A stretch of DNA of 35,343 bases from Bacillota bacterium (GTDB taxonomy: Bacteria > Bacillota_I > Bacilli_A > RF39 > UBA660): positions 1-35,343 of the forward strand of contig SVAK01000009.1 of assembly GCA_015059445.1 (NCBI GenBank), written 5' to 3'. The notes under the pieces are model-generated. The model was given only the letters and a program-made list of their open reading frames with translations. It did not search any database and was not told the DNA's origin. Each line of letters starts with the position of its first letter. Position 1 is the first letter of the stretch. This document shows, one piece after another, positions 1 to 35,343 of this stretch. The position numbers were made by a program, and so were the translations under genes.

Positions 1-127
1 TTTCCATTTATAACCTCCTGCGGTTTTTCTTTTTCCTTTGCATACATCAACTATATGACCATTATTTATATTTAATGTTTTTGAGGCTTTTGATATACTT
101 TCCCACTCATCAATTTTTTTATCATTT
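1..127. repeat. Terminal direct repeat, left copy (assembly overlap)
   Basis: These 127 bases are identical to the last 127 bases of the window (35217-35343). An exact overlap of this length is what a de Bruijn assembler leaves when it closes a circular or circularly permuted molecule with k = 127. It cuts through the 3' part of an HNH gene whose frame stays open across the join, which argues that the ends are contiguous and that this is not a biological terminal repeat. Confidence 0.93.
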
Positions 128-1156: not shown

Positions 1157-3343
1157 CTAAATTATTTGTTTTTCTTTAATATACTTATAAAACATATTTC
1201 TCAAAGTGATTATATCTTTCCTTAATGTTTCTTCATCTTGTTTCTTTAACCATGCATAAAAATAATTTGAAGTAGCATTATATAATCCAGATAATTTTAC
1301 ATTATTTCTACGTAATACTTGCTCTTTTACTTTTCTCATACTTTTCCAAAAATTGTAATATGGGAATTTTAGCTTTGTCATTATTCCAGAACATTCAATA
1401 ACTACACCTTCTATATCTTTCTTAGACATATCATCCTCATCAGTATTTTCTAAATACCATTTATGAAATTCTCTGACATTATCAAATTCCTTATATATAG
1501 TTTTGCATTCACAATTAATTAGTTTTGCTAATTCTTGCACTTTTTCGTAAGGCTCCTTCTTAAATTCATAATCATTATGTATAATATCGAGCAATACAAG
1601 TTTAGATTCATTATATTGAATGATGTGCGGATCATGTTCTATATCTATTACTTCAAACGTTAATGAAACATCATTTTTTTCTAAAAAATATTCTAATTGT
1701 TGCTTGTTAATATTACTGTTTTCATAGATATTTCTAAACCATTCAGCAAAGTCACCTTTATTAGTTGATTTACTTGCTACAAACAATTCTCCATTAACCC
1801 ATGACATAATACCTAAATAGCCATTTTCTTTTTTATAGCATGTTATCTTATCCTTAAATTTAACAATTAAATGTTCCAACTCTGTGTCTCTTCGTTCATT
1901 TACATTAAAGAATTTTTCATAACCTCTTGCAACAACTTTATTTGTATTTGTATTTATAAATAATCCCCTAGCCTTACAAGTCAATTCATTCCAATTTTTA
2001 TTGTAAAAAGCATTATGAGTAAAATTAAATGAACTTATATTATTATCTAATACTGTTTCTTTAATATCTCTTGAATTTCTTAATTGCTCTATCATTGGTA
2101 TTTCATTAATTATTTTTGTTTTACACTCTTTAACCTCATCATCTACTTCTTGACTGCCATAATTATTATTTTTTATCTTTATCAAAGTAGGAATTTCTTC
2201 TTTATTTAATTGCAATACTTTTAAATAACCTCCAAATTCTACCTTCCCCTCTAAATTATATGATTTTCTATTTACATCATCTATTTCATATGTATTTCTG
2301 TGGCCATGAATTTGCATTACTAAATTAGTCATAGTATTTTCTGTATATATGTTATCTATATCTACGTTATAATCTCCTACACCATTTATAAATTGCTCTG
2401 TTGCAATTAGCTGTAATTCATCTGGAAGATAACTAATTCCGCCATGTGAAATTAAATATGTTATCTTTCCAAATTTAAAATAAGCTATCTGTCCTATTTT
2501 TCTATAAAATGCCCTTAAAGCTTTTTTATCTAAATCTAAAATCTCAACCATAGTTTTCTTTAAAAATGTGTTAGATTTTATGTTTTCAATTTCATCAAGC
2601 GAATAATAATTAATCCACTTTTCATGATTGCCTTCTAAAAATAATACATTTTTACGATTTGATATAGACATTAAAAATTCTAATGTTTCTTTATTTTGTA
2701 GTCCTCTATCTATATAATCCCCACAAAATATATACATTTCATTTTCATTAAATGGATATTTTTCAAAATACTCTTTCAAAGGATCATAACACCCATGGAT
2801 ATCACCAAATACATTTACTCTTTCATAATGATTTAAATCAAGTAGTTTCATACCTACTTCATTCCAAAAATTATTTTTATCTACTTTTACCCAACCGCTT
2901 GTTTTTCCTTGTGTTCTTAATCTTGAATACATTTTATCTATAACATTTTCAGGTACTCGTTTGTAGTCTTCTCTCTGTAAATTTCTTCTTTTGCATTCTT
3001 CTAATGACACATCACTAAAATCTACAAAATATCTTCTATATCTATATCTTTCACATAATTTATTGTATCTGCTAAAATCACTTGATCTACTATGAGTTGC
3101 GTCTATTATTACAAATTCTCCCCTAGACATTCTCTTTTCTAGTAATTCAAATAATAATTGCCATACATAATTATCATTTTTCTGGCTTATTACCCTATGG
3201 TTTTTATCAGCCACAATTATAGGACTTTCCACTAATAGCCTTATTGAATCTGCACTCAATGTATAATTTTCTAGTCCCATTTCTTTAACCCATGTAGATT
3301 TACCACTTGCTGGGCTTCCTCTTAATATAATTAAAGTCCTCAT
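1157..3343 (-). CDS. pnkp: Trifunctional RNA-repair enzyme: 5'-kinase, metallophosphatase, RNA ligase
   Basis: 728 residues with three catalytic modules in the order of bacterial Pnkp. (1) Polynucleotide kinase: P-loop GSPASGKST at 9-17, and SADSIR with D32 and R35 at the positions of the T4 Pnk general base and phosphate-binding arginine. (2) Calcineurin-type phosphoesterase: GDIHGC 180-185, GDYIDRG 208-214, GNHE 238-241, HGG 300-302, HGH 346-348. (3) Nucleotidyltransferase ligase resembling the T4 Rnl1 group: RGLF about 459, EKFFN about 476-480, probable motif I KENG with nucleophile K505, motif III LTFEVID, motif IV EGVVIE, motif V KLKFP. Family knowledge: such enzymes remove 2',3'-cyclic phosphate, phosphorylate the 5'-OH and seal broken RNA such as cleaved tRNA. 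Inference: it counters host anticodon nucleases. It is shorter than typical bacterial Pnkp (about 850 residues), and no Hen1 methyltransferase gene is adjacent. Confidence 0.9.
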   Translation of the reverse strand: MRTLIILRGSPASGKSTWVKEMGLENYTLSADSIRLLVESPIIVADKNHRVISQKNDNYVWQLLFELLEKRMSRGEFVIIDATHSRSSDFSRYNKLCERYRYRRYFVDFSDVSLEECKRRNLQREDYKRVPENVIDKMYSRLRTQGKTSGWVKVDKNNFWNEVGMKLLDLNHYERVNVFGDIHGCYDPLKEYFEKYPFNENEMYIFCGDYIDRGLQNKETLEFLMSISNRKNVLFLEGNHEKWINYYSLDEIENIKSNTFLKKTMVEILDLDKKALRAFYRKIGQIAYFKFGKITYLISHGGISYLPDELQLIATEQFINGVGDYNVDIDNIYTENTMTNLVMQIHGHRNTYEIDDVNRKSYNLEGKVEFGGYLKVLQLNKEEIPTLIKIKNNNYGSQEVDDEVKECKTKIINEIPMIEQLRNSRDIKETVLDNNISSFNFTHNAFYNKNWNELTCKARGLFINTNTNKVVARGYEKFFNVNERRDTELEHLIVKFKDKITCYKKENGYLGIMSWVNGELFVASKSTNKGDFAEWFRNIYENSNINKQQLEYFLEKNDVSLTFEVIDIEHDPHIIQYNESKLVLLDIIHNDYEFKKEPYEKVQELAKLINCECKTIYKEFDNVREFHKWYLENTDEDDMSKKDIEGVVIECSGIMTKLKFPYYNFWKSMRKVKEQVLRRNNVKLSGLYNATSNYFYAWLKKQDEETLRKDIITLRNMFYKYIKEKQII

Positions 3344-6610: not shown

Positions 6611-7419
6611 TTATCTCCCAAATTAATTCCCATATTTAAATAACTATCAATAATATCGTTTCTTAACAACATATCAGTACCAGCTTGTTCTAATGCAATT
6701 TTTCCAAATTTAGTCCAAATACTTTCATAAACTACTTCTTGATTAACTGGAACTACTTCTTTTATCTTTTGATTTTCGTTATACAATTGGTGCCAACTAT
6801 TAGTTTCCATATTCAATGTTTTTAGTTTTAATTCTAAATTTAATAATTGTTGAGTTGTCATTTCTTCTAATGTAGTCCACAACTCTTTTTGAACTACTGT
6901 GTTTAATGATTCTTTTACTACACCCATTTTTCGCATTAATTCGCCGATAGTTACTTTTGCTAGGTATTTAGCTTCTTCGTCACGAATAAACATATTTTGA
7001 TATATTTCAAACGTTTTATTTGTTCTTTTTGATTTTTCAATATCCTCAGCACTTGCAATCGCACTATCTACACCAAATCCAGCAAATCCTAATGCTCTAC
7101 CAACTGCAGAAGTTTCACAATTTTCAATCATAGATGTCTTGTTGATGTAATCTTTTTTAGAATCTCCTGTAAGCATTTCACTAGCTCTACCTGTTGCTAA
7201 TACTTCACCATTCTCATTACTAACCTTAGCCATTATTCGCACATAATCATCCTTTATTTCTTCGATTATTGTCTCGATAGGTCCAGTAGGATATACTTTA
7301 CGAAAAGCTTTTATACGTTCGTTTACTTGTGCGTAGCCTTTAGTTCCTAGTTTAATTGTTTCGATATCCTTATTTGCTTTTTCTATTTGTTCATAACTAA
7401 CTCTAATTTTATCTTCCAT
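6607..7419 (-). CDS. Putative ssDNA-annealing protein (Rad52/ERF-type)
   Basis: About 270 residues. I prefer the second of two tandem ATGs (7419), spaced better from AAGGAG. The N-terminal half contains KAFRKVYPTGPIETIIEEI, VRIMAKVSNENGEVLATGRASE and ENCETSAVGRALGFAGFGVDS. This layout (a beta-rich core, then a conserved helix with the invariant TSAVGRALG) is seen in phage proteins treated as distant Rad52/ERF annealing proteins. The C-terminal 120 residues are helical. Two SSB genes and a NinB-like gene adjoin it, as in single-strand annealing modules. A remote-homology search would be needed to fix the family. Confidence 0.62.
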   Translation of the reverse strand: MEDKIRVSYEQIEKANKDIETIKLGTKGYAQVNERIKAFRKVYPTGPIETIIEEIKDDYVRIMAKVSNENGEVLATGRASEMLTGDSKKDYINKTSMIENCETSAVGRALGFAGFGVDSAIASAEDIEKSKRTNKTFEIYQNMFIRDEEAKYLAKVTIGELMRKMGVVKESLNTVVQKELWTTLEEMTTQQLLNLELKLKTLNMETNSWHQLYNENQKIKEVVPVNQEVVYESIWTKFGKIALEQAGTDMLLRNDIIDSYLNMGINLGDK

Positions 7420-7714
7420 CATTGTTCTCCTTATTTGCTAAAAACGTTATTCTTTCTGCTAGTAATTTATTATTTTTTATAAATCTACCTCGAACACCAA
7501 TTACGTCTCCTTTTTTGCAATATTCAATTACCCTTTTTGCAATACCACTCCAAACGTTACATGTAACAAAATCAGTTTCATAAATGCCGTCTGCGTTCTT
7601 GTATTCTCTTTGTATTGCAATCGTTATTTCTACTTCAATATTTCCATTTTCTAAATTTTCGATTTCAGTAGGATTACTTGCTAATCTTCCTGCTAACATA
7701 AATTGATTTATCAT
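7409..7714 (-). CDS. Second SSB-like OB-fold protein, no acidic tail
   Basis: 101 residues with the SSB pattern: MINQFMLAGRLASNPTEIE, EVEITIAIQREYKN, FVTCNVWSGIAKRVIEYCKKGDVIGVRGRF. It stops right after the OB fold, with no linker or acidic tip. Its ATG overlaps the TGA of the replication gene (ATGA) and its end overlaps the annealing-protein start. It diverges strongly from the 154-aa SSB downstream, so it is not a recent duplicate. It may bind ssDNA at the origin or assist annealing rather than recruit host partners. Confidence 0.88.
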   Translation of the reverse strand: MINQFMLAGRLASNPTEIENLENGNIEVEITIAIQREYKNADGIYETDFVTCNVWSGIAKRVIEYCKKGDVIGVRGRFIKNNKLLAERITFLANKENNDGR

Positions 7715-31660: not shown

Positions 31661-32926
31661 TTACATTAACTTTCTATTTGAAATTTGCCATGTATTAGAT
31701 ATTGTATAATCCTCTATGGCATATCTTGCACTATCTATGCTATGGTTATTTTCGTCAGGATACTTACTTTTAAAGTTGCCTAATTTATCTTTTTCATATT
31801 CATACATACTAAATTCTTTTGATGCATTAGGACATCTTTTAGGATCTATTACAATACTTTCTAAATTCTGCAAAAATTTTATTCCATATTCAATACTATC
31901 AGGACCTTTTTTCGCACCTTTTACTCTTAAACCCAAACTTCTTAATTGATCAATACTCTTTGGTTCAGCAGAATCACAGGTTATAAAACTATGCCCTATC
32001 TTTGTTTTTTTTATTTGTTCAGCCAATTCAATATTGCTCATTCCAACCTTATATATTTCGTTAAAAATAAAAATACGTCTTCTCGTCTTATCATACTGTA
32101 ATTGCAAATAGCAATTCGGATCAACCGCATATCCAAAATCATTACCATCAAGAATATTATCATATTTATCAATTTCTTCATTTGTGATTTCTCTTAATGT
32201 TATATTTGTAAATACAGCTCCACCTGTTCCTGTTGCTTCGCCTAAATATTCATTTTTATATGCTAATTCATTTACTTTTTTTAAGTGTTCTGCTTCAAGT
32301 ATTGCCGGCTCTCCCAACCATTCTTTAGGAACATCCAAATATGTACTATGATGAACAACTGTTTTAGGTTTTGGAATTATTATCTCCGCATTAACCCAAT
32401 TATTAACACTTTTAGGTGGATTAAATGAATAAAATACTTTATATATATCTCCACCTCTCATCAATGATTGATTGATGCTTCTTATTTCTTCCATTCCAAA
32501 AAATTCATCTACTTCTTCATACCAAACATATTTACAATATCCTTTTTTTATCTTTATTGATTTAATTTTTTTATAATCTTCTTTATTGTTGGCACTTCTA
32601 AACAATATTTCTTGTCCAGTCGGCTTATAAATTAATTTTAAAGGACTAACTTTCATTTCCCAATAATAATTAACTCCCAATTTTTCTATAGCCCAGATTA
32701 ATTGCGAATAAACCGAATCTGCTAATGTATCTCCTACTTTACGCAATACTACTGCATTAGCAATTTTATCTTTCATCATACCAAGTATTATTTCAATACT
32801 AATAAATGATGATTTAGTAGACATTCTTCCACCTTTTAACCAATAATGAGTATTCAAATCTGATTTTAAATCCTTATGCAACATATAAAAACTTGGTGCA
32901 ATTATTTTACTTAATTGTATTTCCAT
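31661..32926 (-). CDS. terL: Terminase large subunit (PBSX/SPP1 type)
   Basis: 421 residues. ATPase: Walker A variant LKGGRMSTKSSF (about 31-42), Walker B KYVWYEEVDEF, coupling motif YSFNPP. Nuclease: DGNDFGYAVDPNC, FITCDSAEPKS, SIDSARYAIEDY with the acidic metal ligands. Its first 16 bases overlap the 3' end of the HNH gene, and its SD lies inside that gene's GGY codons. Motor and nuclease for DNA packaging. Confidence 0.95.
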   Translation of the reverse strand: MEIQLSKIIAPSFYMLHKDLKSDLNTHYWLKGGRMSTKSSFISIEIILGMMKDKIANAVVLRKVGDTLADSVYSQLIWAIEKLGVNYYWEMKVSPLKLIYKPTGQEILFRSANNKEDYKKIKSIKIKKGYCKYVWYEEVDEFFGMEEIRSINQSLMRGGDIYKVFYSFNPPKSVNNWVNAEIIIPKPKTVVHHSTYLDVPKEWLGEPAILEAEHLKKVNELAYKNEYLGEATGTGGAVFTNITLREITNEEIDKYDNILDGNDFGYAVDPNCYLQLQYDKTRRRIFIFNEIYKVGMSNIELAEQIKKTKIGHSFITCDSAEPKSIDQLRSLGLRVKGAKKGPDSIEYGIKFLQNLESIVIDPKRCPNASKEFSMYEYEKDKLGNFKSKYPDENNHSIDSARYAIEDYTISNTWQISNRKLM

Positions 32927-33456
32927 ATATAACCACCAGCAGTTTTTCTTTCACCTCTACAACAGGCATCTATATGGTTTATTTTTAATTCTGTAGCTGG
33001 CATTTTCACAGAATTCCATTTTTTAATAAAATTACCACGTAAATCATATTGTAAAACACATTTTGCATGTGGATTATCTTCAATTTTTATATTGTGCATA
33101 GGATTTTCTTTTCCACATTTAAAAAGATTATTCGTATTGAATAATCCATTTTTTATTGCATGTCGAACATTATAAGATGCTGTACACCATTCCAAATTAT
33201 CGACACAATTATTTAATTTATTTCCATCTTTATGATTTACTTGAGGCAGATTGTCAGGATTTGGTATAAAAGCTTCTGCTACTAATCTATGATTTTTTTT
33301 GCTTTTACACTTGCCATTTTTCCATAAAGTTATATAATAATACCCATTTTTTCCTATTCTTGGTTTTCTAATAATATTATTATATAGGCTTTTAACGTTT
33401 CCTAAATTAGATATTTCGTAATTTTCATAACCTTCAATGCTTTTCCATATTTCCAT
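32911..33456 (-). CDS. NUMOD4-HNH endonuclease between the terminase genes
   Basis: 181 residues. NUMOD4 (MEIWKSIEGYENYEISNLG), HNH core (HRLVAEAFIPNPDNLPQVNHKDGNKLNN, NLEWCTASYN), and NUMOD1-type C-terminus (VKMPATELKINHIDACCRGE, RKTAGGYIWKYN). Same C-terminal motif as the HNH protein at 1-657. It separates terS from terL and overlaps the terL start, an insertion point often used by phage homing endonucleases. Confidence 0.93.
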   Translation of the reverse strand: MEIWKSIEGYENYEISNLGNVKSLYNNIIRKPRIGKNGYYYITLWKNGKCKSKKNHRLVAEAFIPNPDNLPQVNHKDGNKLNNCVDNLEWCTASYNVRHAIKNGLFNTNNLFKCGKENPMHNIKIEDNPHAKCVLQYDLRGNFIKKWNSVKMPATELKINHIDACCRGERKTAGGYIWKYN

Positions 33457-34175: not shown

Positions 34176-34251
34176 TGGTTGGCAAGGTAGGACTTGAACC
34201 CACGACCGCTGAGATATAAGCTCAGAACTCTAACCACTGAGTTACTTGCCA
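34176..34251 (-). tRNA. tRNA-Ile, anticodon UAU, CCA encoded
   Basis: A 76-nt cloverleaf on the minus strand: acceptor TGGCAAG/CTTGCCA, T8-A9, D-stem ACTC/GAGT with 8-nt loop, anticodon stem CTGAG/CTCAG with loop CTTATAT (anticodon TAT), variable CGGTC, T-stem GTGGG/CCTAC with loop TTCAAGT, discriminator A and CCA. Reads AUA directly, a codon heavily used in this AT-rich genome. Most bacteria read AUA with a lysidine-modified CAU tRNA; this one would not need that modification. Lies between the hairpin-repeat region and the packaging HNH gene. Confidence 0.93.
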
Positions 34252-34255
34252 ATAT

Positions 34256-34276
34256 AAAAAGAGCTTTTCAGCTCTC
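34256..34276 (-). terminator. Terminator just upstream of the tRNA
   Basis: AGAGCT-GAAA-AGCTCT (minus strand) followed by five T, ending a few bases before the tRNA's 5' end. It would end transcripts from the repeat region, so tRNA and late genes need read-through or antitermination. Confidence 0.75.
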
Positions 34277-34330
34277 AAAGGGGGTTTCATAGAAAATATT
34301 AATAATGCACCCTAGCATTTATAATATTCA

Positions 34331-34680
34331 TTAGTATCTTAATTGATACTGTACTAAATAATAATAGTGCTGCAACACCCTATTTATGCAAGCAATCATC
34401 ATATAGCCCTAATCACAAAACTATATTCAAAAACATAAATAGTTTTTATTATTCAGTACACTAGCAATTAACTAGTGCATGTAGCTGGAACTACATATAC
34501 AACAATACGAACAAGAGAACGATTAACATATAACCGTGTTCTCCTTAGTACCAAAATTAATTGATACTGCACTAACGATATATTTAGCGTTACATCAATA
34601 AAAAAACAAACAATCAACAAAATGAGCAAAGCAAATTTTTTTATATATCATTAGTACACTAACAATTAAGTTAGCATGTA
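34331..34680. repeat. Array of four related hairpin repeats in a 480-bp non-coding region (possible cos/regulatory region)
   Basis: The stretch 34277-34759 has no convincing gene. It holds four related units on the plus strand: 34331-34372 (AGTATC-TTAATT-GATACT, then GTACTA..TAGTGC), 34454-34480 (CACTAG-CAATTAA-CTAGTG), 34545-34594 (AGTACC..GATACT, then TAACG..CGTTA) and 34651-34678 (CTAAC-AATTAA-GTTAG). Shared words are TTAGTA(C/T), (C/T)ACTA and AATTAA. ATGTAG-CTGGAA-CTACAT at 34479-34496 is a further hairpin. Upstream of an HNH-terS-terL block this is where cosN/cosB would lie; an RNA regulatory role is the alternative. Confidence 0.6.
34491..34529 (-). CDS. Possible 12-aa hydrophobic peptide
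   Basis: ATG at 34529, 11 bases after AAGGAG, encoding MLIVLLFVLLYM then TAG. Entirely hydrophobic. It sits within the hairpin-repeat region. It could be a leader peptide or chance; listed for its good SD. Confidence 0.2.
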   Translation of the reverse strand: MLIVLLFVLLYM

Positions 34681-34759
34681 AAAAGGGTTTTATTTGAATA
34701 ATAATTCAAATGAGAACTTTTAAATTTTCTCACATTATCATTGTATCAAAAAAAACGTG

Positions 34760-35197
34760 TCATAGTGTGTCATCTTTATTAAAAAATCTTAATTTGTGAT
34801 ATTTCTTATATATTCTTTGGCATTGCTCTTTTGAATAATGAACTAATGTTGCTATTTCTCGCCAAGTATATTTTTTTAAACAAATATCTTTGTAATAAAC
34901 AATTAATTGTTCTACTTTATCGTATTTCTTTAATATCTTAAGTTCTTTTTCTATCCAGTCCATCAAATTTAACTTACGACTTTGCTTTAATTGTATTTTT
35001 TCATCTAATTGCTTTATCTCTTTAATTTCAACATATTCTAGTAGCTTATCAACTCGTTTGCCACCATCTACGATCATTTTATCTGTACTAACTGCTTGAA
35101 TGTCTACACTAGCTTCTAGTACCTCTTTTTCTTTTAATAATAATTCTATTTCATTATCTAATCTTTCTACTTCACAATTAGCGTCTTTTAAAGTCAC
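34760..35197 (-). CDS. ArpU/RinA-like late transcription regulator (DUF1492-type)
   Basis: 145 residues from a GTG at 35197, nine bases after GGAG; longer readings enter the HNH gene. N-terminal coiled coil (ANCEVERLDNEIELLLKEKEVL), a middle helical part (QLKQSRKLNLMDWIEKELKILKKYDKVEQLIVYYKDI) and a C-terminal sigma-70 region-4-like helix-turn-helix (YTWREIATLVHYSKEQCQRIYKKYHK). This layout is that of DUF1492/ArpU/RinA proteins, which switch on late genes in Bacillota phages. Its place just before the terminase block supports that. Confidence 0.82.
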   Translation of the reverse strand: MTLKDANCEVERLDNEIELLLKEKEVLEASVDIQAVSTDKMIVDGGKRVDKLLEYVEIKEIKQLDEKIQLKQSRKLNLMDWIEKELKILKKYDKVEQLIVYYKDICLKKYTWREIATLVHYSKEQCQRIYKKYHKLRFFNKDDTL

Positions 35198-35343
35198 TCT
35201 TTTCAACTCCTTTATATTTCCATTTATAACCTCCTGCGGTTTTTCTTTTTCCTTTGCATACATCAACTATATGACCATTATTTATATTTAATGTTTTTGA
35301 GGCTTTTGATATACTTTCCCACTCATCAATTTTTTTATCATTT
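35178..35343 (-). CDS. C-terminal part of the NUMOD4-HNH gene (continues at window start)
   Basis: On the circular map this is the end of the gene at 1-657: bases 35217-35343 repeat 1-127, and 35178-35216 add the last 12 codons (YKGVEKSDFKRR) and TAA. The final 20 bases overlap the GTG start of the late regulator. Confidence 0.9.
   Translation of the reverse strand, partial: NDKKIDEWESISKASKTLNINNGHIVDVCKGKRKTAGGYKWKYKGVEKSDFKRR
35217..35343. repeat. Terminal direct repeat, right copy (assembly overlap)
   Basis: Exact copy of bases 1-127; see the left copy. Removing it gives a circular unit of about 35,216 bp. Confidence 0.93.

What the first reader, a model, noticed from the sequence alone, without database searches (positions are those of the whole stretch)
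34277..34759. 480-bp non-coding region with four related hairpin repeats before the terminase block
In a genome where genes overlap, 480 bp without a gene is striking. Four units share TTAGTA, CACTA and AATTAA words with arms that co-vary (AGTATC/GATACT, CACTAG/CTAGTG, TAACG/CGTTA, CTAAC/GTTAG). The arms change while pairing is kept, which suggests selection for structure. Position next to HNH-terS-terL fits a cos region or a late regulatory RNA.
Basis: partly seen in the sequence, partly recalled or inferred. Interest (0 to 1): 0.75.

Follow-up and report, generated by a model that had tools for sequence, protein, structure and literature searches.

The report
New tandem-module phage noncoding RNA family
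The gene-free stretch encodes, on the strand opposite to the one first read, an untranslated phage RNA built of two repeated folding units; related units occur in some ninety virus and prophage sequences, many from ruminant guts, and match no catalogued RNA family, but what the RNA does is unknown.

Summary
The structure lies on the MINUS strand, the strand of the late genes, and folds far better than chance (z -6.3). Two tandem modules, each hairpin H1 - long helix P2 - hairpin H3 (34674-34547 and 34477-34333), lie between a promoter-like site (34748-34740) and an intrinsic terminator (34276-34259), then tRNA-Ile. No Rfam family matches. A structural descriptor found relatives near terminase genes of related phages; pattern scans then gave about 170 modules in some 90 phage loci, often tandem, in two main sequence types; the window carries two of type B. 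Covariation is strong (97% of cells paired, 20 of 24 pairs with two-sided changes, 0/500 shuffles). Strand-specific G-U pairs show that RNA, not DNA, is selected. H1 and the inner part of the long helix use the same bases, cannot coexist, yet both covary: the RNA apparently rearranges. Most phages have one such locus, in the head/packaging region, co-directional with its neighbours, with promoter-like sites and terminators enriched around it. Cos is unlikely. Most likely a stand-alone late phage noncoding RNA with unknown target; cis-acting roles (antitermination, RNA protection) remain open.

The parts
34740..34748 (-). promoter-like extended -10 (TGATACAAT); start site expected near 34733
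   Evidence: Sequence. Two host-genus gene starts have the same T-run + GATACAAT/GATAAAAT layout (L027, L030). Inferred, not tested.
34547..34674 (-). module 1 (type B): H1 34674-34670/34663-34659, helix strands 34669-34644 and 34583-34557, H3 34568-34563/34552-34547; complementary loop words UUAAUU/AAUUAA
34333..34477 (-). module 2 (type B): H1 34477-34472/34464-34459, helix strands 34471-34446 and 34365-34339, H3 34350-34345/34338-34333; loops UUAAUU/AAUUAA
34259..34276 (-). intrinsic terminator (GAGAGCTGAAAAGCTCTT + T run) closing the RNA unit
   Evidence: 1 found, 0.2 expected in shuffles
34176..34251 (-). tRNA-Ile, anticodon TAT, directly downstream
34760..35266 (-). upstream gene, PHROG 36 (transcriptional regulator)
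   Evidence: E 2.4e-8
31661..32926 (-). terminase large subunit (Terminase_3), the gene used to find relatives

Best explanation
It is a phage noncoding-RNA gene of about 475 nt, transcribed on the minus strand from an extended -10 promoter to the terminator at 34259, made of two tandem copies of a conserved module. Shown: the modules, their family, and selection for pairing at RNA level. Each module can fold two ways: strand b pairs with strand a (hairpin H1) or with strand c (one continuous helix of about 25 bp with a fixed G.G mismatch). Both pairings covary, so both appear to be selected. Inferred: H1 forms first as the RNA emerges; the complementary H1 loop acts as a toehold and strand c then displaces strand a. 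Inferred and less certain: the finished RNA acts in trans as a stand-alone late transcript, like other orphan phage RNAs found beside tRNAs (ROOL, GOLLD), for example by binding a host or virion-assembly factor.
For: Fold z -6.3 on the minus strand. 58-sequence alignment: 97.3% of cells paired, 20/24 pairs with two-sided changes, shuffles 0/500, slid controls 29-48%. H1, loop-loop and H3 covariation against permuted partners z 16, 11, 10. Triples switch together: X11 a/b/c = G/C/G in type A (83/102) and A/U/A in type B (23/32); X12 U/A/U versus C/G/C. G.G kept in 104/108 and sense-only G.U at three positions. Unit character: promoter-like sites upstream 43/87 sense versus 16 antisense; terminators after the last module 30/91 versus 5 antisense and 8 upstream. 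Co-directional with downstream genes 75:3. 36 of 40 records matched, most once, the rest twice. In L176 two modules follow a 12/12 consensus promoter and precede a ROOL RNA.
Against: Two thirds of loci show no recognisable terminator nearby, and several copies run straight into a ribosome-binding site (L008, L159, L171, L187), which suggests a cis-acting leader there. No expression data. The order of folding is inferred from energies (continuous helix lower in 107/115, median 4.5 kcal/mol), with module 2 of the window an exception. No target or partner is known.
Confidence: 0.55

Rival explanations
1. Cis-acting transcription element: a nascent-RNA antiterminator or attenuator (works like HK022 put or the B. 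subtilis EAR) that lets polymerase read through the adjacent terminator into tRNA and late genes.
For: Module tens of nt to about 150 nt behind a promoter-like site in many loci, terminator soon after it, then late genes; in the window terminator, tRNA and the whole late block follow; two exclusive folds suit a switch.
Against: Promoter-like sites are also enriched just downstream of the module (30/116 sense versus 7 antisense), so downstream genes may not need read-through. put is about 70 nt with two stem-loops (PMC9378689), unlike this fold. No Rfam family matches.
Confidence: 0.2
2. RNA-protection element: a pseudoknotted leader that blocks 5'-3' exonucleases (RNase J) and stabilises late mRNAs, tRNA precursors or ROOL, comparable in role to viral xrRNAs.
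For: Tandem copies, possible H1-loop pseudoknot, position near RNA 5' ends, upstream of tRNAs, ROOL and structural genes.
Against: Where a terminator follows at once there is nothing downstream to protect; presence of RNase J in the hosts was not tested.
Confidence: 0.12
3. Kissing-loop multimer: H1 loop of one molecule pairs with H3 loop of another, forming rings or cages (works like phi29 pRNA or ROOL/GOLLD).
For: Loops complementary and covarying; head/packaging location.
Against: In arrays the loop pairs fit their own module somewhat better than neighbours (7.6 versus 6.9 of 8), and copies without an H3 3' arm keep the complementarity, as expected of pairing inside one module.
Confidence: 0.1
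4. DNA site (cos/pac or protein-binding inverted repeats).
For: Near terminase genes.
Against: Fixed G.U pairs on one strand only would be A.C mismatches in the other; location varies among relatives; strict co-direction with genes.
Confidence: 0.03

Closest known systems
ROOL RNA (RF03087)
   Same: Structured noncoding RNA of phages/prophages, found in rumen, often near tRNAs, function unknown (PMC12286853); one relative carries modules and ROOL side by side (L176)
   Different: No Rfam match for the module; ROOL in L176 is a separate element about 340 nt downstream; the module is small and tandem
phi29 pRNA
   Same: Two complementary hairpin loops next to a junction; packaging neighbourhood (recalled from general knowledge)
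   Different: Third arm is closed by a variable loop and the RNA ends lie between the two hairpins; no Rfam match; Terminase_3/SPP1-type packaging genes
HK022 put RNA
   Same: Phage RNA near a promoter with terminators downstream
   Different: put is about 70 nt, two stem-loops, early promoters (PMC9378689); here tandem three-helix modules in the late region
Riboswitch expression platforms
   Same: Two mutually exclusive helices and strand exchange
   Different: No known ligand, no constant downstream gene, shared strands are of conserved sequence

Membership tests
ROOL / GOLLD | match to the Rfam covariance model | tested here: not met
   No hit in the window or module regions; the same search finds a true ROOL in L176
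ROOL / GOLLD | homo-oligomeric RNA cage | not testable with these tools
   needs cryo-EM or mass photometry
phi29-type pRNA | intermolecular kissing of two loops | tested here: inconclusive
   complementarity covaries but tends to fit within the module
phi29-type pRNA | match to an Rfam model; phi29-type packaging ATPase | tested here: not met
   no Rfam hit; terminase is Terminase_3
HK022 put | about 70 nt, two stem-loops | tested here: not met
   against PMC9378689
HK022 put | suppresses termination in cis | not testable with these tools
   needs transcription assays
cos site | constant place next to terminase genes, DNA-level signal | tested here: not met
   variable location and RNA-strand-specific wobbles
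cos site | packaged DNA ends map here | not testable with these tools
   no reads available

The most novel reading that the evidence does not exclude
A previously undescribed class of phage RNA whose conserved property is an obligatory strand exchange between two mutually exclusive helices, used in tandem as a late-infection RNA device (for instance acting on RNA polymerase or on head assembly).
Probability: 0.35. Interest if true: 0.85.

Novelty: new variant of a known kind. Interest (0 to 1): 0.72.

Why it matters
It adds what appears to be an unlisted RNA family to the small set of orphan phage noncoding RNAs (ROOL, GOLLD), common in gut phages, with alignable members and a clear structural model. 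The double covariation of two exclusive helices is rare evidence, from sequence alone, that a rearrangement is selected, and makes the question of what such phage RNAs do directly testable. It also shows how such families escape sequence-only searches: BLAST and Rfam found nothing.

Tried and rejected
BLASTN in phages, plasmids and 60 relatives' genomes: only tRNA or chance matches. Pattern CATGC-TTAATT-GTGTACT: only the same phage plus chance; its relaxed form was mostly chance. Rfam at gathering and permissive thresholds: tRNA and one ROOL only. Covariance model R1 misses modules with long tips and did not score the window significantly, presumably because hit length is limited; a Python descriptor replaced it. 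INPHARED terminase relatives (Blautia phage Montmirail, Dulem virus 35, human gut contigs) show no module by the descriptor in the stretches fetched. Outer a-d pairing was tested and shows no covariation. Two hits (L230+107, L240-3017) are antisense readings and were left out of later counts.

Full report
WHAT IS THERE. The window is a phage genome: its two ends overlap by 127 bp when compared with a near-identical IMG/VR contig, so it is a circular assembly of about 35.2 kb. Terminase, portal and head genes run on the minus strand. Between a PHROG-36-like gene (34760-35266) and tRNA-Ile(TAT) (34251-34176) lies the gene-free stretch. As minus-strand RNA it folds far better than shuffles (z -6.3); as plus-strand RNA much less so (z -2.7). 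An intrinsic terminator (34276-34259) closes it. Its 5' side has an extended -10-like TGATACAAT (34748-34740); a similar layout precedes gene starts in two host-genus genomes (L027, L030). The promoter is inferred.

ANATOMY. Folding the parts separately shows a tandem duplication. Each copy is hairpin H1 (loop UUAAUU), a long helix P2 with a tip that differs between copies, and hairpin H3 (with AAUUAA, complementary to the H1 loop). Strand names: a = H1 5' arm, b = H1 loop + 3' arm + P2 5' strand, c = P2 3' strand + H3 5' arm + loop, d = H3 3' arm. Positions in b are numbered X0-X25 and in c Y0-Y26; in the continuous helix X(i) pairs with Y(26-i).

FINDING RELATIVES. BLAST and Rfam gave nothing. 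Terminase homologues were fetched and scanned with a structural descriptor. This found modules on the terL strand in L004, L005, L007, L008, L017 and in a prophage of the host genus (L036/L156). Their P2 carried the words AGTAGATATA...TATATCTATTC; a pattern from them hit 90 stretches in IMG/VR (listed) and 16 in GTDB genomes, of which a handful carry modules, several in MAGs from ruminant guts. The window-type module was then found in L270, L272, L276 and, decisively for homology, in the same arrays just beside the first type in about 15 phages (L162, L175, L212, L214, L221, L232, L242, L244, L261 and others). Another host-genus prophage (L157) carries a module intermediate in sequence between the types. 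So all three members of the host genus found with this terminase carry it, at different places in the late region.

STATISTICS. On 58 diverse modules, 97.3% of cells in the 24-pair b-c helix are standard pairs, 20 of 24 pairs have changes on both sides, and no shuffle of 500 reaches any measure; sliding partners by 1-3 columns drops pairing to 29-48%. Those modules were picked by sequence words, not by pairing (window and L156 modules excepted). Permutation tests give z 16 for H1 (a-b), 11 for the loop-loop part, 8.7 for the middle part, 10 for H3, and nothing for an outer a-d helix. The G.G mismatch is kept in 104/108, and G.U wobbles at three positions are fixed in the sense strand, where the other strand would have A.C. 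This speaks for RNA rather than DNA. In the window the same descriptor hits only the two modules.

TWO EXCLUSIVE HELICES. Bases X6-X12 of strand b pair with a in H1 and with c in the long helix. Both cannot form at once, yet a, b and c change together: at X11 type A is G/C/G and type B A/U/A; at X12 U/A/U and C/G/C. The energy model puts the long helix lower in 107 of 115 modules (median 4.5 kcal/mol), with the window's module 1 near balance and module 2 favouring hairpins. I infer co-transcriptional strand exchange with the complementary loop as toehold. Pairing of the H1 loop with the strand after P2, as a pseudoknot or kissing contact, is a third possible state and would keep H1. In arrays the loop pair fits its own module somewhat better than a neighbour's (7.6 versus 6.9 of 8 pairs), and copies lacking d keep it, so an intramodular contact is favoured over multimer formation, without excluding the latter.

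CONTEXT. 36 of 40 virus records matched, most once and a few twice; 55 of 95 loci examined have two or more modules by the relaxed descriptor (some loci are cut short by contig ends). Co-direction with downstream genes is 75:3. Recognised neighbours are mainly minor head/portal proteins upstream and terminase, scaffold or major head proteins downstream. Promoter-like sites upstream: 43/87 sense against 16 antisense; terminators after the last module: 30/91 against 5 antisense and 8 upstream. All three host-genus copies are followed by a terminator-like hairpin with a T run. In L176 modules lie between a consensus promoter and a ROOL RNA. Several copies lead directly into an RBS.

READING. Settled: a real RNA family, without a match in Rfam 15, of which the window has a two-module member. 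Likely: a stand-alone late phage RNA. Not settled: trans or cis, and the partner. A cos site is disfavoured. The literature searches found no description of this motif, but the library lacks most subscription papers, so prior description cannot be excluded.

CAVEATS. The 172-module set was selected partly by pairing and is not used for the covariation claim, except that the type A/type B contrast at X11-X12 comes from it. Promoter and terminator calls are consensus scans. Several viral contigs may be close relatives, so counts are not independent events.

Noticed in passing
window 1157-3343 (-): Three-domain protein: P-loop kinase (AAA_33) + metallophosphoesterase + T4-type RNA ligase, as in RNA end-repair enzymes; interesting beside a phage tRNA (possible tRNA repair against tRNA-cutting defences)..
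   Followed up: no
window 34176-34251 (-): Phage tRNA-Ile with TAT anticodon (reads AUA), directly behind the RNA's terminator.
   Followed up: no
window 1-127 and 35217-35343: Window ends are a 127-bp direct overlap when compared with IMGVR_UViG_3300018495_000054: the contig is a circular assembly.
   Followed up: yes
window 32911-33456 (-): NUMOD4 + HNH homing-type endonuclease just before terL; another HNH-like fragment at 35178-35342.
   Followed up: no
L176 2033-3246 (+): Consensus promoter, then at least two modules, then a ROOL RNA (RF03087, 155 bits): two orphan phage RNA families apparently in one transcription unit.
   Followed up: partly
L005 about 7390-7560 (+): After the module unit's terminator a second TTGACA-17-TATAAT promoter starts a short leader with its own hairpins before the scaffold gene.
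   Followed up: no
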